NCBI RefSeq assembly: GCF_016757965.1
Contig: NZ_JAEKIW010000005.1
Span: forward strand, 1 to 64,000
Length of the DNA: 64,000 nucleotides
From: Archaeoglobus neptunius
Lineage (GTDB): Archaea; Halobacteriota; Archaeoglobi; Archaeoglobales; Archaeoglobaceae
Direction: 5' to 3'
Of this stretch, positions 4,876 to 15,108 are shown piece after piece. The stretch's first letter is position 1. The number at the start of each line of letters is the position of its first letter. The translations under genes and the position numbers were made by a program. The notes under the pieces are model-generated. The model saw only the letters and a list, made by a program, of their open reading frames with translations. It searched no databases and was not told where the DNA came from.

Positions 4876-5330
4876 GCTATCTCCTCCACGATCTAATCAC
4901 ATAATCTATAATGATCTTTTCTATGATAAATTTTTTGATCGAAATCTGCCTTCTTTTTTTCCGAAATTATTCCTCATCTCCCAGCAAATCTTTAGTGAAA
5001 CTTGACGAGAAAGCGATAAATTGATAATCAGAGAGAAAGGGAAAGGAACGCTAACTAAGCCAATAGCAGAGGTCAAGAATGTAATATCTGGGATAGTAAA
5101 GCAGATATAAAACTAACAAAATTAAAGAAGCTGGGGAGACCGAAGAAAGCTATCTGGGGAATAATATGGATGCAACGCAATAGTTCTCCAAAAAGATATT
5201 CGGGAGAAATAGGCTAAAAAATAACCAAGGACAAGATCATGATGTATTAGAAATGGATGGCTGAGCGAAATGGGAGTTATGGATTACCTTTTCTAAAAAG
5301 TTTTAAATACAACTGATTTCAAACACATCG
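4876..5330. other. AT-rich intergenic region at the left edge of the defence island
   Basis: About 455 bases with no convincing intact gene. It holds the korD promoter on the left and the radical SAM operon promoter on the right. A short rightward frame at about 5119-5214 reads LGRPKKAIWGIIWMQ followed by RNSSPKRYSGEIG and a stop. This basic, tryptophan-rich string recalls the N-terminal region of transposases but is too short and damaged to assign. No copy of the tRNA-Met 3' end is visible here. Confidence 0.4.
5301..5309 (+). promoter_or_regulatory. TATA box of the radical SAM-drm operon
   Basis: TTTTAAATA preceded by an A-rich BRE-like AAAAAG. It lies about 26 bp before the GTG at 5331 and 35 bp before the ATG at 5340. 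A start of transcription near 5330 would give a leaderless or nearly leaderless message. No other promoter is evident before 14850, since all the following genes overlap or abut. Confidence 0.6.
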
Positions 5331-6500
5331 GTGAGTGTTATGCACGTGCTGTTAGTAAAGCCGATGTTTTACACTAGGTATCCTCCTATTGGCTTACTTA
5401 AAATAGCCTCCTATCACAGAAACCTAGGAGATACAGTTGAATATATTGAAGGCGAAAAAGTTCCCACAGGAAAACCAGATTTGATTTATATTACAAGCCT
5501 ATTCACTTACGCATGGAAGCCTGTCTATAGGGCTGTAAAATACTACAAGGAGATATATCCAGACGTTAAAGTGATTCTTGGTGGGATATACGCTTCTCTT
5601 ATGCCTGACCACGCGGCACTTTCAGGAGCTGACGAGATTTATGTAGGGTTGTTCGAAGAGGCTGAAGACCTTATGCCTGCCTACGATTTAGTTCCGGATT
5701 GGGATGGTAGTATTATTTTTGCGTCTCGTGGATGCATAAGAAGATGCCCGTTTTGTGCAGTTCCAAAGCTTGAAGGAGGGATTAGCAGGATTAGGGACAC
5801 TATAAAGCCACTTGTTTATCCAAAACACACTAAAATAATACTTTGGGATAACAATATATTGGCGTCACCAAAATGGAGGGATATATTCGACGAACTGGAA
5901 GAACTCGGCAAGAAGGTAGACTTTAATCAAGGAATTGATGCTCGACTAATTACCGATGAAATTGCCGAAAAACTTGCGAGTCTAAAAACAAACATCTTGA
6001 GACTTGCTTATGATTCAAAATCGGAAAGAAAAGCTTTAAAAAAAGCTATTGAGAAATTAAATGCTGCGGGAATTAATGGACGAAAAATACTCGTTTATAT
6101 TCTTTACAATTTCCGTGATGACCCACAGGACTTTTACGAAAGAGTTAGAGACGTTCTTGAATGGGGTGCTGTAGCTTATCCGATGAGATTTGAGCCGTTA
6201 GATAGCCTTGAAAAGAACAAATATGTCTCTCCAAACTGGTCTGTAGAACAACTAGAAATGGTTGCAAAAGCTCGCAGAGTTCTCGGTTATTCCGGTGCTT
6301 TGCCACCCTATAAAGCACTGGTAGAGAAATTTCGAAAAGCAGAAACATTTGAAGAGGCATTCAAGTTGAGGCCACCCTCTAAGAAACAAAAAAAGAATAC
6401 AAGGAGAAAATTTAACAAGAAGTCTGCTGAAAGTAAGAGATATTATGACCTTTACAACAAAATCGTGGTGGATGATGTAGGGGGTGTAATTAGGTCATGA
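5331..6500 (+). CDS. B12-binding-type radical SAM protein, first gene of the DISARM-like operon
   Basis: 389 aa from GTG 5331 (386 from ATG 5340, which has GGTGAG just upstream). The N-terminal 120 residues resemble a cobalamin-binding domain (PPIGLLKIASYHRNLGD; VILGGIYASLMPDHA). The radical SAM motif follows as SRGCIRRCPFCAV with cysteines near 135, 139 and 142. Then come WDNNILASPKW and DFNQGIDARL, seen in COG1032-type Fe-S oxidoreductases. The last 45 residues are lysine/arginine rich (KKQKKNTRRKFNKK), suggesting nucleic acid contact. The stop overlaps the helicase start (ATGA). It takes the place a methyltransferase would hold in a DISARM operon; that it modifies DNA, RNA or protein is only a hypothesis. 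Confidence 0.8.
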   Translation: MSVMHVLLVKPMFYTRYPPIGLLKIASYHRNLGDTVEYIEGEKVPTGKPDLIYITSLFTYAWKPVYRAVKYYKEIYPDVKVILGGIYASLMPDHAALSGADEIYVGLFEEAEDLMPAYDLVPDWDGSIIFASRGCIRRCPFCAVPKLEGGISRIRDTIKPLVYPKHTKIILWDNNILASPKWRDIFDELEELGKKVDFNQGIDARLITDEIAEKLASLKTNILRLAYDSKSERKALKKAIEKLNAAGINGRKILVYILYNFRDDPQDFYERVRDVLEWGAVAYPMRFEPLDSLEKNKYVSPNWSVEQLEMVAKARRVLGYSGALPPYKALVEKFRKAETFEEAFKLRPPSKKQKKNTRRKFNKKSAESKRYYDLYNKIVVDDVGGVIRS

Positions 6501-9500
6501 ATAATGCGATTGTAGAAAATGAATTTTGCGAATTTTTAGTTGAAGAGGTAATAGAAAGATTAAAAGGGAGCCACCCACATTACTCCCGATTAATTCTTCT
6601 AAATCAATACCCTCATAGGTATATAATATTAGGTAGTCTCGCACCGAAAATCATTAGAGGTAGTAATGACAGTAGTGAGTTAGAAATGTTTGAGAGTGAA
6701 GAAGTTAGGAAAACAATAATATCTGACAGGGTAAAATCGATTAGTTTTCTTCTAAATTCAAACGAAGTAAACCTGAAGCTGAAGGTTAGTTTTTACGTAT
6801 TCTTTAGGACTGTACCGACTTTAGAAGAGCAAGTACTATTTCTGAGAGGTTACGAAGGACCTATCAAAGATTTTATAGGAGACTTCAGAACAGAAATAAC
6901 AAATCCTGAACATGAATATCAAATTGCGCAAGTATGGCAGCGGAAGCTGGTGGTAATTGAGAAGGACCTGAAATTAAATTTAAATGGCTTAATACAGGAC
7001 CCACTTGTCATCTCTTTAAAAGAAGACGCTATCAGAGCTCTTAAGGAAGGAGGAGAAACTATAAAAGTACCAAAAATATCTAAAAAATCGTTTGTTGGTA
7101 TCGAAGCTCTAGAGAGCAAAGAAAAGTTCGAAGAAGAAATATCACGCTACAGTACTGAAATTACCGTAGATGAGCTAGTCAATGATTTTCTTAACGTATA
7201 TCTTTACATTAACTGCGAAAACTATGAGCAAAATGGACAAGTCTTTAAAAAAATCAGGATAGTTATAGTAAATAACACCATATATGACAAAAAGAGACAC
7301 AAAAACATATACTTAGACCCAGCCATTTTTGACTGTAATATAACAGTGCTCCTAAGTGATGATATTTTTCCCTTTAAAGTAAGAAGTCCCTCAGGTGAAA
7401 TCATAGAAATACCTGTCAGAGCGAACAACTGCAGTGCTGAGTACACTAAAAATTCAGAGTTCAGTTTAATAGAGACTCAAAACTTCCTTCGTTATGATGA
7501 GCCCAGAATTCGCCCCAGAACATCTCCCCCAGACAAACCAGATATCTTCCCAAAATTTTCCGTATTATCGGACCTTGACAATGGAGGTTTTGAAATATTG
7601 GAAGCTATATATGACAGCCTCAGAGGATACTATTTGACGTTGGCTCAAGAAAGACCAGAACTAAAAGACCATATCTATGACTTCATAAAAAAATACAATG
7701 AGGGTTTAACTCTTCTAACAAACGATACTAACGCTAAAAAAGCATTCGAATTGATGAACAAAGTCTTCGACCACTACTCAAAGGATGATTTCGACTCCTG
7801 GAGGTTGTTCCAGATAGTTTTCATAATATGCAATTTACCAGATGTAGTCACTATGAAGGACTTGGACAGCGTAGACCTCCTAAATGTGTTTACAGGGGGA
7901 GGAAAAACCGAAGCTTACTTCGGTTTATGCATGTTCGCTGCATTCTACGATAGACTCATTGGGAGAGATTTCGGGACTACAGCCATAATCAAGTTTCCTC
8001 TGCGAATGCTCTCCATCCAGCAGCTTCAGAGGTTGACGCATATTTTAATAAGTGGCAATTACATTAAAAATCATGAGAACATTGGAGGCGAGGACTTTTC
8101 GCTTGGATTTTTTGTTGGAAAGAGTGCTGAATTCCCTGGGTCGTCTCTCTTAATTATACGAAGACTTAAACCAAATACTCCGGGAAAGTTCATAGATTCC
8201 TGCCCACTCTGCAATTCCAAAGTGTATTTGACTTACGATCATCAAAGTCTCGCTATATATCACACCTGCTCAAATGACAGTTGCTTTCTTAGTAAAGGTT
8301 TGGCGATTCACTATACACAACAGGAAATCTACCGATTTATGCCAACTTTCATTGTCAGTACTGTTGATAAAATGGGTTCGATAGCCTACAACAGACGTTT
8401 TAGAGGGCTAATCGGAGGGAAGGTCAGAAGGTGCAGAAAAGGACATGGATTCTTCCCTGATGGGGATAAGTGTACAGTATCCATTATAAAAGGAAAGGAA
8501 AAGATAATGTGCAATGATCGTGGAGAAGAAGTATCCTTGCCGAACACTTTTGGACCAAGACTGATGATACAGGATGAACTTCACTTAATTCGTGAAGGTT
8601 TTGGGTCAATCGTATCTCACTTCGAGACGCTGATAGAGACAATGAAAGAAAGATTTACTGGAAGTCGTCTAAAATACCTCTGCACAACAGCCACAATTGC
8701 TGGTGCTGATAACCAAGTCTTTAACCTATATCTTAAAAAATTAAGAGTTATTCCTCCAGAATCTGGATACGACATATCCAAGTTCTTCTTTGAGTCCGTA
8801 AAGGAAGATGACAGGCAGATTGTTGGCAGATATGTCTTAGGGCTAAGACCCAATTTAAGAGACAACCAGTATGCAACTCTCTTAACACTTCGCTACATAA
8901 TTCAAGTTATTCTGTCAGCCATGTTAAAACCTAGTGAAATTGCTCAGAGACTGGATATTTCTGAAGAAGATTTAAGACAACTCCTTAAAAACTACATGTC
9001 ATACCTAACATATCACAACAAGAAATCTGACGTCCAATCTACAGCCTTTTATCTCAGAGACGTAGTTGAATCAAAGTTCTATTACAACCCGTCGCTGGAG
9101 ATAAGGAGGTTGCTTTTAAGAAAAACTCTAACAGGAGATAATACAACCGAACAAGTTAAAGAAGTTGTGAACGAGTTGATAGATTTTGAAAAATTGAAAG
9201 AACCAAGAATCTTCGTAACTTCTGCGACCAACATTGTTTCTCACGGAGTTGACATTAAGTGGTGGAATATAATGTTGTTCCAGGGAATGCCGAGGAATAC
9301 GGCAGAATATATTCAGGCATTGAGCAGAGTAGGCAGGAGTTCAAGCGGGATCGTGTTCGTATGGTATTATCCCAATAGAGTCAGAGACTTAGACTTCTAC
9401 AAGAATTTCAAGATATATCATCCAGTTCTTTATAAACACGTTGAGCCAGTTCCCATTACAAGATGGTCAAAGCTGGCGTTAGACCAAACAATACCTTCCG

Positions 9501-9883
9501 TCTTTAGTGCGTCGATTATTAATTACTTGTCTGAGTTGAAGAAAAAACCAATTTATTCAGACTCGCATTTCATACGATATCTTATAAATGAGGAAAGTAG
9601 CGAGGAAGATGTTGACCGAAACTTTAGGACGATTCTGGATTTCATAGAAAAAGCTTACATGAGAGATTTTGAAGATTGGCAGTCGCAGGCGCTTACAATG
9701 CTTATACCAAAGAAAGTTGAAGAACTTAGGAAAAATGTCTATAACCAAGCCAGATACAGGTCAGAAAATTTCTTCCCGAGACATCTTAGATTGCTTTACG
9801 GATTGAGAGGAATTCAAGACATGATTAGCCTTGAATATGATTCAGATACAAGTGTGTTTATACGGAGGAACTCTGGGAGGTGA
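6497..9883 (+). CDS. drmA: DrmA-like helicase of a DISARM-type defence system
   Basis: 1128 aa. Superfamily 2 helicase with a long N-terminal region (about 450 aa), Walker A TGGGKTEAY at 466, a DELH box at 693-696, motif III TATIAG, SATNIVSHGVDI near 907 and motif VI QALSRVGR at 940-947. A zinc-finger-like CPLC...CSNDSC pair lies between motifs I and II. This large split helicase beside a DUF1998 protein and a PLD protein is the drmA-drmB-drmC core of DISARM, where DrmA with DrmB loads on invading DNA. Strongly AT-rich codon use. Other DUF1998-linked helicase systems are the alternative, but the PLD neighbour favours DISARM. Confidence 0.85.
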   Translation: MNNAIVENEFCEFLVEEVIERLKGSHPHYSRLILLNQYPHRYIILGSLAPKIIRGSNDSSELEMFESEEVRKTIISDRVKSISFLLNSNEVNLKLKVSFYVFFRTVPTLEEQVLFLRGYEGPIKDFIGDFRTEITNPEHEYQIAQVWQRKLVVIEKDLKLNLNGLIQDPLVISLKEDAIRALKEGGETIKVPKISKKSFVGIEALESKEKFEEEISRYSTEITVDELVNDFLNVYLYINCENYEQNGQVFKKIRIVIVNNTIYDKKRHKNIYLDPAIFDCNITVLLSDDIFPFKVRSPSGEIIEIPVRANNCSAEYTKNSEFSLIETQNFLRYDEPRIRPRTSPPDKPDIFPKFSVLSDLDNGGFEILEAIYDSLRGYYLTLAQERPELKDHIYDFIKKYNEGLTLLTNDTNAKKAFELMNKVFDHYSKDDFDSWRLFQIVFIICNLPDVVTMKDLDSVDLLNVFTGGGKTEAYFGLCMFAAFYDRLIGRDFGTTAIIKFPLRMLSIQQLQRLTHILISGNYIKNHENIGGEDFSLGFFVGKSAEFPGSSLLIIRRLKPNTPGKFIDSCPLCNSKVYLTYDHQSLAIYHTCSNDSCFLSKGLAIHYTQQEIYRFMPTFIVSTVDKMGSIAYNRRFRGLIGGKVRRCRKGHGFFPDGDKCTVSIIKGKEKIMCNDRGEEVSLPNTFGPRLMIQDELHLIREGFGSIVSHFETLIETMKERFTGSRLKYLCTTATIAGADNQVFNLYLKKLRVIPPESGYDISKFFFESVKEDDRQIVGRYVLGLRPNLRDNQYATLLTLRYIIQVILSAMLKPSEIAQRLDISEEDLRQLLKNYMSYLTYHNKKSDVQSTAFYLRDVVESKFYYNPSLEIRRLLLRKTLTGDNTTEQVKEVVNELIDFEKLKEPRIFVTSATNIVSHGVDIKWWNIMLFQGMPRNTAEYIQALSRVGRSSSGIVFVWYYPNRVRDLDFYKNFKIYHPVLYKHVEPVPITRWSKLALDQTIPSVFSASIINYLSELKKKPIYSDSHFIRYLINEESSEEDVDRNFRTILDFIEKAYMRDFEDWQSQALTMLIPKKVEELRKNVYNQARYRSENFFPRHLRLLYGLRGIQDMISLEYDSDTSVFIRRNSGR

Positions 9884-9888
9884 TACAC

Positions 9889-11793
9889 ATGAACAGGATG
9901 AATCTGGATTTTTCGGCACACAGCGCACTTTTTAGGGCTATGAAGAATATGATAGTTATACACGACGATTTCGTGTTCAGAGTAAAAAGTCTTGAGAGAA
10001 GACATCCATCTAAAGATATTAACATCACAAGATTAAAGAGGGCAATTTTTAACGAAATCCAGAGACTTTTCAACTTCAGAATTCAAAGTTATAACCTCCT
10101 ATATCCTCCCATAACAGATGACGAAATTGCAGGACTCAGCATTCACCAAATAGTTGTAAAGAAGGATGAGACACAAGAAGACGATGTTTATGCTGGCAGA
10201 GTTGAGTTATATCCTTTAGTTTTTATGTGTGATATATGTGGAGATTTTAGAGAGATCAGCTCTCAAGACTTGCAGTACTTCGATACGAAATGTTGCGTCC
10301 AAGGATGTAATGGGAACTATCGTCAGTTAAGCCTGCTACGCTACTGCCGAGAATGCGGTAAAGTCGAGCATTTTCGCTATTGGTGTAGGGCTGAGAATGA
10401 TAGAAGCCTTTCTCAGAAGTATACTGAGCACCCGATACAGCTACTCCAACCATCCAAAGACGCTCTTTTTGGCTGGAAATTCAGGTGCAAAACATGTGGA
10501 TGGGAAAAAGATATATTTGATTTCTCTTGTGACCATTTCGACCAAAAAGCCCAAAAAAAGATTTCCGATAAACCACCAACCAAATTCGACCCCCTGACAA
10601 TAAGAGAAGGGGGCGTATTCCAACCAATCGTGAAAACATACGTTTCTATAGAACCTTTAGAAAACGAGAAGATTCTGGAGGAGGAAGAACTCCTTATTGC
10701 GGTTGGTTACCACCTCGGAATGTTCTCATTTTTAGAGGACATTCTGAAAAGAAGTGAGGGAGAAGCAGAAATTATGAGCTTCAAGCAGGTTAAAAATTTA
10801 CTAAGTTCTCTTAGAAACCTAAAATCAGCAGGGTTAATTAGGTCTGAGCAAGAGAAAGTCTTGGACCAAATGGAGTCCGTACTGGAAAATCTCAAAACCG
10901 CAATAGGACTCATTGGAACAAGAAACCTTGATGAATTTCTTACGATTAAAGACCTGACGATGCCTAGGGGAGACCCCGATGACATTTACAGTCGCTTCGT
11001 CAAAGATTACGAAGGACATCTTGAAAGTTCAAGTCTCCCAGCTGATAAAAAGGAGGAAATAAGGAATAAATACAAGAGAATGTGTGGGAATTTTGGGATT
11101 CAAAATATCACCTATATCCCTGAAATTAAACTTGTTTCAGCATACATCGGCTACATCAAAGGGCCGTTTCCGAGAGATGGGGTACCTCATTTTGAGCCAA
11201 TTTGGATAGATGAAAGAAAGAAATTTGATGTCCACGAGCGAAATTTTGAAGCGTACATACACCCTTACAACACAGAAGGCATATTAGTTGAGTTTAATCC
11301 TCTCAAAATAGTAAGTTGGCTGCGTGAAAATGGCTTCGATGAGCTACGTGCCAACAACGAAAGCGAAGCACGAAAATTGCTTGTGCTTTTACGAGAAGAG
11401 AGTGATGACGGGCCCTATAACATGATTTTCAGACTCCTACACACTTTTTCTCATGCTTTCATGATGAATGCAAGTACATACTGTGGTCTTGACACGGATT
11501 CCTTGGGTGAGATTATTTTCCCCTCCGCAACTGCCGTAATGATATACTCGACAAGCGTGATAAACATTGGCGGGCTTCAATATATGTTCGAAAACAACTT
11601 ACCTGAGGTTTTAGAAGATATGCGGAATCACATTCAAGAATGTATCTACGACCCTGTATGCTCTTCAGAAGGAGGAGCTTGCTTTGCATGTATGTATCTA
11701 CCAGAATACGTCTGCGGGTATCTCAATCAAACTTTGGATAGAAGGATTTTTACAGGTTCGGAAAGTTTGCGGGGGTTCTGGGAACATGGCTAA
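9889..11793 (+). CDS. drmB: DrmB-like DUF1998 protein of a DISARM-type system
   Basis: 634 aa. I chose the ATG at 9889 over the in-frame GTG at 9880 because GGGAGGTGA at 9876-9883 stands five bases before it. Zinc-finger-like clusters occur in the first third (CDICGDF, CVQGCNG, CRECGK, CKTCGWE). The C-terminal DUF1998 domain holds HTFSHAFMM, GLDTDSLGEIIF and a Cys-rich end (CIYDPVCSSEGGACFACMY). In DISARM, DrmB binds DrmA as the second core subunit. The gene starts just after the drmA stop, and its own stop lies inside the drmC start region, so the subunits are likely made in a fixed ratio. Confidence 0.83.
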   Translation: MNRMNLDFSAHSALFRAMKNMIVIHDDFVFRVKSLERRHPSKDINITRLKRAIFNEIQRLFNFRIQSYNLLYPPITDDEIAGLSIHQIVVKKDETQEDDVYAGRVELYPLVFMCDICGDFREISSQDLQYFDTKCCVQGCNGNYRQLSLLRYCRECGKVEHFRYWCRAENDRSLSQKYTEHPIQLLQPSKDALFGWKFRCKTCGWEKDIFDFSCDHFDQKAQKKISDKPPTKFDPLTIREGGVFQPIVKTYVSIEPLENEKILEEEELLIAVGYHLGMFSFLEDILKRSEGEAEIMSFKQVKNLLSSLRNLKSAGLIRSEQEKVLDQMESVLENLKTAIGLIGTRNLDEFLTIKDLTMPRGDPDDIYSRFVKDYEGHLESSSLPADKKEEIRNKYKRMCGNFGIQNITYIPEIKLVSAYIGYIKGPFPRDGVPHFEPIWIDERKKFDVHERNFEAYIHPYNTEGILVEFNPLKIVSWLRENGFDELRANNESEARKLLVLLREESDDGPYNMIFRLLHTFSHAFMMNASTYCGLDTDSLGEIIFPSATAVMIYSTSVINIGGLQYMFENNLPEVLEDMRNHIQECIYDPVCSSEGGACFACMYLPEYVCGYLNQTLDRRIFTGSESLRGFWEHG

Positions 11794-12373
11794 ATTGACA
11801 GACTTATTAGAGATTATAGACAAAAAAACTTCGGTTGTTTGCTTAAGCTACCCCTTTTTTGATAAGTACGGGATATCTGCAGAAATTGAGTACTCAACTG
11901 TACTCTCACTGCATGACTGCTTCCAATTCCTATTTGAAGTTGCTGAAAAGAAAATAGATATTTGCTCCCCATTTATTGAAGCTAACGCCTTACTGAGGTA
12001 TAAAGACATTCTGCGTGAAAAGATTGAAAATGGAGTAAGGCTCAGGATCGTGGCAAGGGTGTTAGATACCGCTGAGGACAGACCTCTTGGCAAATTGAAT
12101 AGTATAGTCCAACACATTAATCCACAAAACTATCCAAACCTAAAAATCTATCAGTACCATTATACTAGCCCCCGTGGAAAACTGCTAAGTGGGATACATG
12201 CAAAATTCATAACGGTAGATGGCAAATTTTGCTATTTGGGAAGTGCGGATATTAAAAATTCTTCGTTACTAAAAAACCTTGAATTAGGAGTCCTCACATC
12301 AGACAAGGAGATCGTCAAAGTAACGGAAATGATTTTTAAGGAGCTTGTTAGAGTATCTGATGAAGTTGGATAG
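11786..12373 (+). CDS. drmC: DrmC-like phospholipase D family protein
   Basis: 195 aa from ATG 11786, overlapping the drmB stop by 8 bp; a longer frame to 11684 lies inside drmB and is unlikely. There is one PLD/HKD motif, HAKFITVDG (H138, K140, D145), followed by YLGSADIKNSSLLKNLELG, the usual Gly-Ser and Asn positions. A single HKD implies dimerisation to form the active site. It is somewhat shorter than the roughly 240 aa I recall for DrmC. Nuclease activity is expected from the family, and DrmC has been reported as dispensable in some DISARM systems. Confidence 0.78.
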   Translation: MAKLTDLLEIIDKKTSVVCLSYPFFDKYGISAEIEYSTVLSLHDCFQFLFEVAEKKIDICSPFIEANALLRYKDILREKIENGVRLRIVARVLDTAEDRPLGKLNSIVQHINPQNYPNLKIYQYHYTSPRGKLLSGIHAKFITVDGKFCYLGSADIKNSSLLKNLELGVLTSDKEIVKVTEMIFKELVRVSDEVG

Positions 12374-12378
12374 TGATC

Positions 12379-14850
12379 ATGAGCGAAAATAATAATGTTT
12401 TCAAATGGTGGGAAGAGTTCAACCTTACCTTTCGTAATCCTAAAAAAAAGAGTATGGACGTGTGTATATCCAGCGGCAAAAAGCCCTTTTTATCTCCATA
12501 TACTAACTTTATAATTAACACGTCAATTGAACTAATGAAAAAAGGAAAGAACGTTGTAATTGCATCTTTTAAACCGATAATTCGCCCTATGCCACTCATT
12601 GGGTACATGGCATCCAAAATATTTCGTAAAGATGTCGAGATCGTCACTTATCGGAGTTCAAAAGAACATCACAACGCTTACTGTTTATTAGCAGAAGCGA
12701 ACTACGTTTTTCTTTCAGTCCCTCCTATATTGGCTAAACAAAACGAGGAAGAAGGTCTTGTTTACCATTTGCAACCTTACATGCCAAAAGTGGGACGTAG
12801 CAGAAAATTGGATTTACTACAGGACGCTACTAAATCCTTAGGCACTTCAAACAAAGTACTGTTCTCAGAAAACTATTTAGTATTGTCGCAAGGAGAAGTT
12901 GAGATAAACGTTAAAAACGAAAAAGTGTTAGCAAGGTTAGAACCCAGAGTCTTCTTAATTGAAAATGGAAAGTTTTACTTAAAACATTCAAAATACTTCA
13001 TGAAGTTTGCCGAAAACGTTGATGGTACCTTCCTGATTTACATACAATCATCACTCAATGATGTTGTTTTAGAGTTTGCCAAAAGCCTCGACGCTGAAAT
13101 TATTTATTTACCACAGTCTTTTTTGTCACTTACTAAACATCATGCATACGATAAGTACAAAACAAAAATCTCCAGTAACAAATTCTTATTCACTGCTGGA
13201 TTTCCATTCTCAGAAGATGGATGGTTTTTAAAAGATGCCCAAGCTTTGCTTGATATGTTGAATTTCGACCACGAATATGATTACTTCTACCCCAAGATTG
13301 AAATTGTGGGTATAAAAGGGTTCGAAAACTTAAAAGTACACCTTCAAAATATCCTAAAACAACTTTATGGGTTATTTCAGGCTCAGGTAAACATAAAGTA
13401 TCTTATAGGAGACGTTTACAAAACCTCTACAAAAGCAATAAGGAGATTCCTACCTCCTGACTTAATATCCAAGTACAACCCTCGCACTGGATACCCTGAA
13501 ATTGAGTACGAATACTACTTAAAACAGATTGAACGTGCCCTTAACCGTATATCAGATGGCCGATTCTATGCTAAACTTCATGATGTTCGTTATAGCTTTT
13601 CAGCGATCTGCAACACCCTTAAACAAGTCAGTAGACCCTATAGTAAAGATAGTTTCCCAGATAGTAAATTGATGACTTTGCTAAAACTATTAAAACAAAG
13701 GGAGCCTGGAAAAAGATACTATATTTGCTGCACCAATGACCCAGTTAGCACTGTTGAAAGAATAGTCAAAAATTATCTGGGTGATACGAACACCCGCAAT
13801 GGGGTAATAGTCCTTAATCCAAATAGTCTTGCAGACCTCCTGAGTAAGAATGAAATAAAACCCAATTCGGTTTTAGTAGTCTCAGACCCAACAAGTGTAT
13901 TTAAGTTACTACCTGCCCCATTTGATAAAGTGTTCGTCTTGGCTTACGAAGGCGTTGAAAATTATGAAGAACTTGAAAACTGGGAAATAAAAAAAATATA
14001 TGATACAAAGTTGGCTATCGATTTGATTTACAGCTTGCATAGACAGCTCGGAATAGAACCTCCAAAGTTATTCTCGAAACTTCTAAAAGAGTTAGTCGGA
14101 AAACGTGAAGAAGAATATCTCAAGGAAATATCAAGAATGAAAAAAGTTCTACCTAAAGTTAGAGATGAACACCGCACTCCGTCTTACTATCAGAAAAGTG
14201 AAAGAAGTGTCCGAACTTGCAGAGTATTGTTAGAACCCTTAAAAGGAGGCATGTGTCGTGAATTGGAGGGTACACTCAACAAACGCATCCTGAGAATCGA
14301 GGAATCTACAGGTTTCGAAGTTGTTACATTATCAGAACTTAAAGATGAAGACGTGGTTTGTTTAATAGACGATGATGATAGGAAAGACTTGGTTGATTTC
14401 CTCTCTGAATTCGTCATGGAACAAGTTGATACCGAGTTTGTGAAATACTGGTATACCAAACTTGTAGAATTCCTTGCTGAGAACCAGATGACCTATTCTG
14501 AATTCTACAAAATATACAAGAGCACTAAAAAGAAGAATGTTAGAACATTTCCGGCAGTGAGACAATGGCTGCTGGGTAAAACTCTGGCTCCAGACGATAA
14601 AGATGACCTGAAGGTGCTTGGAGAAATTATGGATGATGACTTTCTGCTTGAAAATTACGCGAGGATTTATGAAGAGGCAAACAAAATCAGAAAGGTGCAT
14701 AGAATCGTTGGCAGGAAAATATACAACATTGTCAGAGGTATTATTACTTCAGACTTTTCAAGTATAACGAGCTTTGATGATGAATTGATAGCTTCCAGAG
14801 TTAGATTATACAGAGTAGTCTCAGTCGATACAGGAAATTCTACACCTTAA
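12379..14850 (+). CDS. Large protein in DrmE position; DrmE-like, function unknown
   Basis: 823 aa from ATG 12379 (a GTG at 12373 is in frame and overlaps the drmC stop). I see no canonical Walker, nuclease or methyltransferase motif. The middle has alternating helix/strand stretches such as VLVVSDPTSVF and FDKVFVLAYEGVENYEEL, which recall the RecA-like fold of a degenerate helicase. The C-terminal third is charged and helical. Class 2 DISARM carries drmE, a protein of about 800 aa without known domains, so size, neighbours and operon suggest DrmE. This rests on context rather than on a recognised signature. Last gene of the operon; AT-rich like its neighbours. Confidence 0.6.
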   Translation: MSENNNVFKWWEEFNLTFRNPKKKSMDVCISSGKKPFLSPYTNFIINTSIELMKKGKNVVIASFKPIIRPMPLIGYMASKIFRKDVEIVTYRSSKEHHNAYCLLAEANYVFLSVPPILAKQNEEEGLVYHLQPYMPKVGRSRKLDLLQDATKSLGTSNKVLFSENYLVLSQGEVEINVKNEKVLARLEPRVFLIENGKFYLKHSKYFMKFAENVDGTFLIYIQSSLNDVVLEFAKSLDAEIIYLPQSFLSLTKHHAYDKYKTKISSNKFLFTAGFPFSEDGWFLKDAQALLDMLNFDHEYDYFYPKIEIVGIKGFENLKVHLQNILKQLYGLFQAQVNIKYLIGDVYKTSTKAIRRFLPPDLISKYNPRTGYPEIEYEYYLKQIERALNRISDGRFYAKLHDVRYSFSAICNTLKQVSRPYSKDSFPDSKLMTLLKLLKQREPGKRYYICCTNDPVSTVERIVKNYLGDTNTRNGVIVLNPNSLADLLSKNEIKPNSVLVVSDPTSVFKLLPAPFDKVFVLAYEGVENYEELENWEIKKIYDTKLAIDLIYSLHRQLGIEPPKLFSKLLKELVGKREEEYLKEISRMKKVLPKVRDEHRTPSYYQKSERSVRTCRVLLEPLKGGMCRELEGTLNKRILRIEESTGFEVVTLSELKDEDVVCLIDDDDRKDLVDFLSEFVMEQVDTEFVKYWYTKLVEFLAENQMTYSEFYKIYKSTKKKNVRTFPAVRQWLLGKTLAPDDKDDLKVLGEIMDDDFLLENYARIYEEANKIRKVHRIVGRKIYNIVRGIITSDFSSITSFDDELIASRVRLYRVVSVDTGNSTP

Positions 14851-15034
14851 CTCCTAAAATTGACGGACTCAAAAAGCTTTCTTCTAACTTTTTACTATAC
14901 TTTACTTTGCATCAGAAAGTAGGAGGTAGTTAGATTTTTATAAGGGCTGAAAGTGGACAAATAGTACAATCCAAGTCTATAAAATTCGACTCCTGGTGGA
15001 AAGTCATGGTAGGGCATAGAACTGGAAGAAGGAG

Positions 15035-15108
15035 TGCCGAGGGGGGGATTCGAACCCCCGACCTCCTGATTATGAGTCAGGCGCCCCAACCAGCTAGGCT
15101 ACCTCGGC
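15035..15108 (-). tRNA. tRNA-Met (CAT), probably elongator
   Basis: 74 nt cloverleaf read from the minus strand: acceptor GCCGAGG pairing with CCTCGGC, anticodon arm CCTGA-CTCATAA-TCAGG, T arm with GGTTCGAATCC, discriminator A, no encoded CCA. The acceptor begins with a G-C pair rather than the A-U pair of archaeal initiators. It also differs from the GGGCCCG acceptor of the Ile2 type seen at 59162, so elongator Met is the best call. Its 3' end faces the DISARM-like island, the orientation expected if the island integrated at a tRNA. Confidence 0.9.

What the first reader, a model, noticed from the sequence alone, without database searches (positions are those of the whole stretch)
5331..14850. 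Methyltransferase-less DISARM-like operon led by a B12-type radical SAM enzyme
Five overlapping genes encode radical SAM, DrmA-like helicase, DrmB-like DUF1998, DrmC-like PLD and a DrmE-size protein. Described DISARM systems (class 1 with drmD/drmMI, class 2 with drmE/drmMII) use a DNA methyltransferase to mark self. None is encoded here or next to the operon. A radical SAM protein with a basic tail holds the first place. It may supply a different self mark (a radical-installed base change), act on the Drm proteins, or the system may discriminate self without modification. Gene content and overlaps are seen; the family roles are known; the replacement idea is inference.
Basis: partly seen in the sequence, partly recalled or inferred. 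Interest (0 to 1): 0.92.

Follow-up and report, generated by a model that had tools for sequence, protein, structure and literature searches.

The report
DISARM-like defence with radical-SAM self-marker
An archaeon carries a virus-defence operon related to DISARM in which the usual DNA methyltransferase is missing and a B12-type radical SAM enzyme stands in its place; the same enzyme family sits beside several other DNA-attacking systems and in phages, which suggests an undescribed kind of DNA self-marking chemistry.

Summary
Window 5331-14850 is one low-GC, five-gene operon: B12/radical-SAM (rSAM), DrmA, DrmB, DrmC (PLD) and a divergent DrmE. No DNA methyltransferase (MTase) is in or near it, and the 99.99%-complete genome shows only a truncated, unlinked MTase remnant. 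The rSAM is not a passenger. All 11 DrmA proteins of this clade (100/100 support) in deeply different archaea sit beside an rSAM of this family. Their rSAMs are not one clade (AU p = 6e-5), so the gene was exchanged but never lost. In the sampled phylum, the 13 rSAM-less DrmA loci carry a nearby MTase (12 cytosine-C5, 1 DUF1156-type); the 8 rSAM loci carry none beyond a 33-residue scrap. The rSAM family also recurs beside DGQHR/DpdB-like proteins, GHKL ATPases, an SNF2 module and NurA-HerA, and in viruses beside ParB-N6/N4-MTase fusions. Best reading: the rSAM makes a DNA mark that replaces methylation as the self signal for a class-2-like DISARM core. The chemistry is untested; cobalamin use is inferred from fold only. 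I found no paper describing this. It fails DISARM's MTase criterion, so I call it a DISARM variant and the rSAM a candidate new family of DNA-modifying enzymes.

The parts
5331..6500 (+). B12-binding-domain radical SAM protein (389 aa; ATG at 5340 is also a possible start); candidate DNA-modifying enzyme in the place of DrmM
   Evidence: Pfam B12-binding 2e-9, Radical_SAM 5e-6; AF2 model pLDDT 90.4, nearest PDB folds MtaB, AprD4, TokK; conserved beside drmABC in 11 DrmA loci
6497..9883 (+). DrmA-like SF2 helicase (1128 aa)
   Evidence: PADLOC DrmA 1.9e-108, NCBIfam DISARM_DrmAS 9.8e-99, PDB 7S9V_A 7e-51
9880..11793 (+). DrmB-like DUF1998/MZB protein (637 aa)
   Evidence: PADLOC DrmB 5e-29, NF038324 4e-21, PDB 7S9V_B 1e-6
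11786..12373 (+). DrmC-like phospholipase-D nuclease (195 aa from ATG; the mechanical ORF begins at 11684)
   Evidence: PLDc_2 1e-14, DISARM_DrmC_I 8e-12, HAKFITVD motif
12373..14850 (+). DrmE-family protein (825 aa), class-2 DISARM marker, divergent
   Evidence: PF24957 DrmE_C 1.2e-15, NF038316 2.4e-16; homologous to the enlarged ~1100-aa protein at the same place in relatives (hhalign 99.1%, E 6e-19)
5300..5311 (+). TATA-like AT-rich stretch (gttttaaataca) about 20-30 bases before the first gene; possible archaeal promoter
   Evidence: seen in the sequence; not tested
15034..15108 (-). tRNA-Met at the distal edge of the low-GC island; neighbouring landmark, not part of the system
   Evidence: ARAGORN; the tRNA-Met next to gyrA is also found in congeners without the operon

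Best explanation
This is a class-2-like DISARM core (DrmA-DrmB helicase complex, DrmC nuclease, DrmE) in which self DNA is marked by a B12-domain radical SAM enzyme instead of a cytosine or adenine methyltransferase. Proposed steps. (1) The rSAM enzyme, using a 5'-deoxyadenosyl radical and probably cobalamin, installs a base change (methyl or other group on an unactivated carbon) in host DNA; in many relatives a DGQHR/DpdB-like ATPase aids access or targeting, but the window's genome lacks one. (2) DrmAB loads on DNA with 5' overhangs; the mark keeps it inhibited on self DNA, as methylation does in studied DISARM. (3) On unmarked invader DNA, DrmAB is activated and DrmC, DrmE or the helicase itself blocks or degrades it. 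Shown here: gene content, homology, operon layout, clade-wide retention, MTase exclusion, family contexts. Taken from published DISARM work: steps 2-3. Inferred: that the substrate is DNA, the kind of chemistry, and the self-mark role.
For: (a) All 11 DrmA proteins in the window's clade (100/100 support) sit beside an rSAM of this family, and none of the 12 outside it does. (b) Those rSAMs are not one clade: AU p 5.9e-5, 9 context changes. The rSAM was replaced by different subfamilies yet kept, which argues for need. (c) In the sampled genomes, 12 of 13 rSAM-less DrmA loci have a C5 MTase within about 20 kb and the 13th a DUF1156-type MTase with DPPY; 0 of 8 rSAM loci have an MTase nearby apart from a 33-residue scrap (Fisher 5e-6 to 4e-5, not corrected for kinship). 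(d) G000 and G270 show no intact DNA MTase in the families searched. (e) Of 83 rSAM loci, 77 have a recurrent restriction-type neighbour: GHKL ATPase 42, DGQHR 22 (21 adjacent on the same strand), SNF2 module 20, Drm 11-12, NurA-HerA 7. Partners change 8-11 times each on the rSAM tree, as expected of an exchangeable modification gene. (f) DGQHR proteins belong with DpdB and DndB of known DNA-modification systems; DpdB is described as the ATPase for inserting dPreQ0 into DNA (PMC12839542). (g) Viral copies abut or overlap ParB_N-N6_N4_Mtase fusion genes (L175, L188, L206), a Dam-like gene (LoVEphage) or a DndB-like gene (L153). (h) The fold matches B12-domain rSAM enzymes. (i) The operon is a low-GC island; no congener has this rSAM.
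Against: No chemical evidence for any DNA modification. Cobalamin binding is not shown: no DxHxxG motif, and the close structural match AprD4 has a B12-like domain without, to my knowledge, bound cobalamin. The window's genome has no DGQHR partner, and a targeting protein is not identified. Some rSAM relatives sit beside an N6-MTase-like gene (cluster c20: L076, L086, L087, L097), so rSAM and MTase are not exclusive in every context. MTase exclusion coincides with a single DrmA clade, so it may be one evolutionary event. DISARM also discriminates by DNA end structure, so a mark is not strictly needed.
Confidence: 0.6

Rival explanations
1. The rSAM is part of the attack rather than self-marking: it makes a lesion or alters bases on foreign DNA during DrmAB unwinding, or makes a small antiviral molecule, as viperin-type rSAM enzymes make chain-terminating nucleotides.
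For: It is always in the operon; antiviral rSAM enzymes exist (viperins, general knowledge); self versus non-self could rest on DNA end structure as in studied DISARM (PMC9142583).
Against: The fold is B12-domain rSAM; no viperin appears among the listed PDB matches. Viruses carry copies beside ParB-MTase fusions or a Dam-like gene, as expected for protection rather than attack. Partners are DpdB/DndB/ParB-like. MTases are missing exactly where the rSAM is present.
Confidence: 0.15
2. The rSAM modifies a protein or RNA of the system, for example activating a Drm protein or a host tRNA, and DrmAB needs no DNA mark.
For: The nearest fold (MtaB, PDB 9a6d) is a tRNA methylthiotransferase; many rSAM enzymes modify RNA or peptides.
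Against: The same rSAM family pairs with unrelated DNA-attack cores that share no obvious protein substrate; the distribution is patchy and island-like, unlike a tRNA enzyme; partners are DNA-modification proteins.
Confidence: 0.13
3. The DISARM-like core discriminates self by DNA structure alone (5' overhangs), and the rSAM is a regulatory or accessory gene of little importance to self-recognition.
For: DrmAB is reported to recognise 5'-overhang DNA, and methylated DNA still supports some ATP hydrolysis (PMC9142583).
Against: Retention of the rSAM through replacement by different rSAM lineages and its generality across restriction systems.
Confidence: 0.09
4. The rSAM gene is a passenger next to a degenerate DISARM whose methyltransferase was lost.
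For: The genome holds a truncated DUF1156-type MTase remnant on another contig.
Against: rSAM-Drm linkage in 11 DrmA loci of diverse archaea, a 4-base rSAM-DrmA overlap and shared low GC; the remnant sits with VapC-type genes far from the operon; the Drm genes are intact.
Confidence: 0.03

Closest known systems
DISARM class 2 (drmE-drmMII-drmA-drmB-drmC)
   Same: DrmA, DrmB, DrmC and a DrmE-family protein, all by profile
   Different: No DrmMII or DrmMI; a B12/rSAM gene leads the operon; the DrmA clade is separate and deep (window DrmA 41-44% identical to its nearest relatives)
Dpd (7-deazaguanine DNA modification)
   Same: RM-like system with a non-methyl base mark; relatives of the window operon carry a DGQHR/DpdB-like gene beside the rSAM; DUF1998 and YprA-type helicase shared
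   Different: No DpdA (TGT) or DpdC recurred among the neighbour clusters examined; the candidate modifier is rSAM; the window's genome lacks DGQHR
ARMADA / BRIGADE / TALON (YprA-helicase defence classes, PMC12458937)
   Same: YprA/DrmA-type helicase at the centre
   Different: ARMADA has a PglX-like MTase, BRIGADE 7-deazaguanine genes, TALON a NERD nuclease; the preprint's main text has no mention of radical SAM, DndB or DpdB
Cobalamin-dependent radical SAM methylases and B12-domain rSAM enzymes (TokK, AprD4, MiaB/MtaB-type)
   Same: B12-binding-like Rossmann domain plus rSAM barrel, CxxxCxxC; TM-score 0.52-0.62
   Different: 14-16% identity; no PDB sequence match at E 0.01; known members act on small molecules, peptides or RNA, none on DNA to my knowledge

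Membership tests
DISARM | DrmA helicase | tested here: met
   PADLOC 1.9e-108, NCBIfam 9.8e-99, PDB 7S9V_A 7e-51; below the 950-bit equivalog cut-off, so divergent
DISARM | DrmB (DUF1998) protein | tested here: met
   PADLOC 5e-29, NF038324 4.4e-21 (below its curated cut-off), 7S9V_B 1.1e-6
DISARM | DrmC phospholipase-D protein | tested here: met
   PADLOC 1.9e-15, NF038319 8.3e-12 (below its curated cut-off), HKD motif
DISARM | Class-2 gene drmE (or class-1 drmD) | tested here: met
   PF24957 1.2e-15 above its cut-off, NF038316 2.4e-16 below its cut-off; distant, no PADLOC hit
DISARM | DNA methyltransferase DrmMI or DrmMII | tested here: not met
   None in the operon or flanks; no PF00145 hit in the genome, only RNA-MTase-like or truncated weak hits for PF02384/PF01555/PF02086
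DISARM | Anti-phage activity dependent on DrmAB ATPase | not testable with these tools
   needs plaque assays
Dpd | DpdA TGT-type transglycosylase with a preQ0 pathway | not tested
   not found among recurrent neighbours, but no dedicated DpdA search was made
Dpd | DGQHR/DpdB protein | tested here: not met
   Absent from G000 by PF14072 and TIGR03187; present in related rSAM loci
Cobalamin-dependent radical SAM methylase | B12-binding domain plus CxxxCxxC rSAM core | tested here: met
   Pfam B12-binding 1.7e-9 above cut-off, CIRRCPFC motif, fold match to TokK
Cobalamin-dependent radical SAM methylase | Bound cobalamin and methyl transfer | not testable with these tools
   requires purified enzyme

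The most novel reading that the evidence does not exclude
A widespread, undescribed family of B12-domain radical SAM enzymes installs a DNA base modification by radical chemistry and serves as an exchangeable self-mark for at least five unrelated restriction cores (DISARM-like, GHKL, SNF2 module, NurA-HerA, SMC/ResIII), with phages carrying copies as counter-marks; the window operon is its DISARM branch.
Probability: 0.5. Interest if true: 0.94.

Novelty: new variant of a known kind. Interest (0 to 1): 0.86.

Why it matters
Host DNA marks in restriction systems are known as methylation, phosphorothioation and 7-deazaguanine insertion. A radical-SAM mark would be a new chemistry for epigenetic self-recognition, able to reach unactivated carbons. 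It would explain how a DISARM core works without a methyltransferase and would give a direct test of what DrmAB senses. The family's recurrence across bacterial and archaeal phyla and in viruses means one positive mass-spectrometry result would annotate many defence loci and phage genes at once.

Tried and rejected
A genome-contig scan with DrmA alone found no relatives; the rSAM alignment scan gave 80 loci. A possible MTase in the genome (PF02086/PF01555 hit on contig C3) was followed and found to be a 337-aa DUF1156-type N-terminal remnant without the DPPY half, beside a 773-aa ORF without a Pfam hit that I recognise as DUF499-like and VapC-type genes; the C15 hit is a THUMP-type tRNA MTase by its sequence. 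A PDB sequence search with the rSAM profile gave nothing. The DrmE structure prediction was poor (pLDDT 55) and was not used, so a hidden catalytic fold in DrmE is not excluded by structure. G085's rSAM lies among carbamoyl-phosphate synthase genes with a type-I-R-like gene about 7 kb away and was not counted as a defence context. The V1296 methylation sensor of studied DrmA could not be placed, as the alignment to 7S9V ends before it. Literature searches found no report of a radical SAM in DISARM or of this family in DNA modification; the library is open-access only.
Full report
Observation. The window's five genes at 5331-14850 are real, intact and co-directional, with overlapping or abutting ends. 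Profile searches place them as B12-binding radical SAM, DrmA, DrmB, DrmC and DrmE, and phmmer aligns DrmA and DrmB with the solved DISARM complex 7S9V. All five have GC 0.37-0.40 in a 0.46-0.48 background. The operon lies between an oxidoreductase cluster and tRNA-Met/gyrA. A one-contig congener (G005) keeps gyrA, tRNA-Met and the oxidoreductase genes without the operon, and no congener has this rSAM, so it is an acquired island. The host is an archaeon: relatives include Methanoculleus-type genomes.

No methyltransferase. PF00145 has no match in the 99.99%-complete genome. PF02384 gives one 21-bit hit in a 363-aa protein that I read as a THUMP-type tRNA MTase. PF01555 and PF02086 both hit one 337-aa ORF, which is the N-terminal third of a DUF1156-type MTase (DUF1156 57 bits) lacking the DPPY half, on another contig beside a 773-aa ORF that I recognise as DUF499-like and VapC-type genes. 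G270, another rSAM-DISARM genome, likewise shows only sub-threshold or weak hits in a 352-aa protein. Other, rarer MTase families were not searched.

The rSAM is a fixed member of a DrmA clade. DrmA relatives in the phylum were collected, their neighbourhoods fetched and annotated. Seven genomes with 41-44% identical DrmA all carry an rSAM of this family next to drmAB and the other genes; more loci came from the rSAM scan (L080, L081, L147, and L088 with drmBCE at a contig end). On the DrmA tree the 11 rSAM-bearing proteins form one clade (100/100); none of the 12 others has an rSAM. The rSAMs of these loci do not form a clade: holding them together is rejected (AU p 5.9e-5, log-likelihood 691 lower) and the context changes nine times on the tree. 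The DrmA and rSAM trees disagree: window DrmA lies nearest L051/L052/L147 by path, whose rSAMs belong to the other rSAM group. The rSAM has thus been exchanged by non-orthologous replacement while its presence was kept. In L053-L055, L078, L080 and L081 the rSAM is paired with a DGQHR gene and DrmE is replaced by a ~1100-aa protein that is a diverged DrmE (hhalign 99.1%).

Exclusion of MTase. Among sampled DrmA genomes, 12 of 13 rSAM-less loci have a cytosine-C5 MTase within about 20 kb, and the 13th (G143) a DUF1156-type MTase with a DPPY motif; 0 of 8 rSAM loci have one, apart from a 33-residue N6-MTase scrap about 13 kb from the G294 operon (Fisher 4.4e-5 for 12/13, or 4.9e-6 for 13/13). 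Caveats: rSAM presence is a single change on the DrmA tree, so the p-value is optimistic; PF01555 was run on rSAM genomes only; some contigs are short (G248, 10 kb).

The family beyond DISARM. A pattern scan plus tblastn found 336 relatives, the best 80 kept. Clustering neighbours of the rSAM genes and annotating clusters shows: GHKL ATPase of the MutL/BbrUII type; DGQHR proteins of the DpdB/DndB type; a c2-c5-SNF2-c2 module (c2 annotated as ParB N-terminal in a plasmid record); NurA-HerA-like pairs (named so in Marinitoga camini virus 1); SMC-like/ResIII/Schlafen sets; ParB_N. Of 83 non-redundant loci 77 have at least one, and 21 DGQHR genes are directly adjacent on the same strand. Partner types change 8 to 11 times each on the rSAM tree. 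This is the pattern of a modification gene exchanged among restriction cores. The cluster labels were derived from these same neighbourhoods, so the 77/83 figure is descriptive, not a test.

Viruses. Copies occur in Marinitoga camini virus 1 (51% identity), Bacteroides phage LoVEphage (near a Dam-like gene), Methanomassiliicoccales viruses and many IMG/VR contigs. In L175, L188 and L206 the rSAM abuts or overlaps a ParB_N-N6_N4_Mtase fusion gene, and in L153 it follows a DndB-like gene. Some contigs in that collection are clearly carriers of complete host-type modules (L156-L160, L173, L184), but the short viral form beside ParB-MTase genes looks like a phage DNA-modification set.

Enzyme. The AF2 model (pLDDT 90) matches MtaB, AprD4 and TokK: a B12-type Rossmann domain before an rSAM barrel. 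The invariant residues include the three cluster cysteines, GG-A in the Rossmann domain, DNN, and R/W positions. Whether cobalamin is bound is open.

Mechanism. In studied DISARM, DrmAB is autoinhibited, loads on 5'-overhang DNA and is less active on methylated DNA (PMC9142583). The simplest reading here is that the rSAM's product on DNA takes the role of methylation. DpdB is described as a ParB-like ATPase used to insert dPreQ0 into DNA, dispensable in some clusters (PMC12839542), which fits DGQHR being common but optional beside this rSAM. Marked as inference: DNA substrate, chemistry, sensing of the mark by DrmAB.

Novelty. No paper in the open-access library links radical SAM enzymes to DISARM or describes this family as DNA-modifying. 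The YprA-helicase preprint that defines ARMADA, BRIGADE and TALON does not mention radical SAM, DndB or DpdB in its main text. Because the MTase criterion is not met, the window operon is filed as a DISARM variant rather than a DISARM member.

Noticed in passing
L131, L156-L160, L184, L212, L213 and ~20 genome loci: A mobile module DGQHR - radical SAM - GHKL ATPase with ParB-like c2, c5 and a short SNF2 helicase (plasmid-borne in Roseomonas and Bradyrhizobium) looks like a complete, unnamed restriction-modification-type system common in Alphaproteobacteria.
   Followed up: partly
L175, L188, L206 (IMG/VR contigs): Short phage radical SAM genes overlap or abut ParB_N-N6_N4 methyltransferase fusion genes, suggesting a phage DNA-hypermodification pair.
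   Followed up: partly
L209 (Marinitoga camini virus 1, 5995-7077): A virus carries a 51%-identical radical SAM gene beside HerA and NurA-like genes.
   Followed up: partly
L053-L055, L056, L057, L078, L080, L081, L135: A ~1040-1110-aa protein replaces DrmE and is a highly enlarged, diverged DrmE without a Pfam domain.
   Followed up: partly
G000 contig C3 around 84.7-90.1 kb (L231 7707-13131): Remnant of a DUF1156-type methyltransferase next to a DUF499-like ORF and VapC-type toxin genes in the window's own genome: a decayed second defence system.
   Followed up: yes
L076, L086, L087, L097: Radical SAM genes close to Eco57I/N6-type methyltransferase-like proteins (cluster c20): contexts where rSAM and an MTase coexist.
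   Followed up: no
L099 10001-12593: Two radical SAM genes of this family in tandem beside a ParB_N gene.
   Followed up: no
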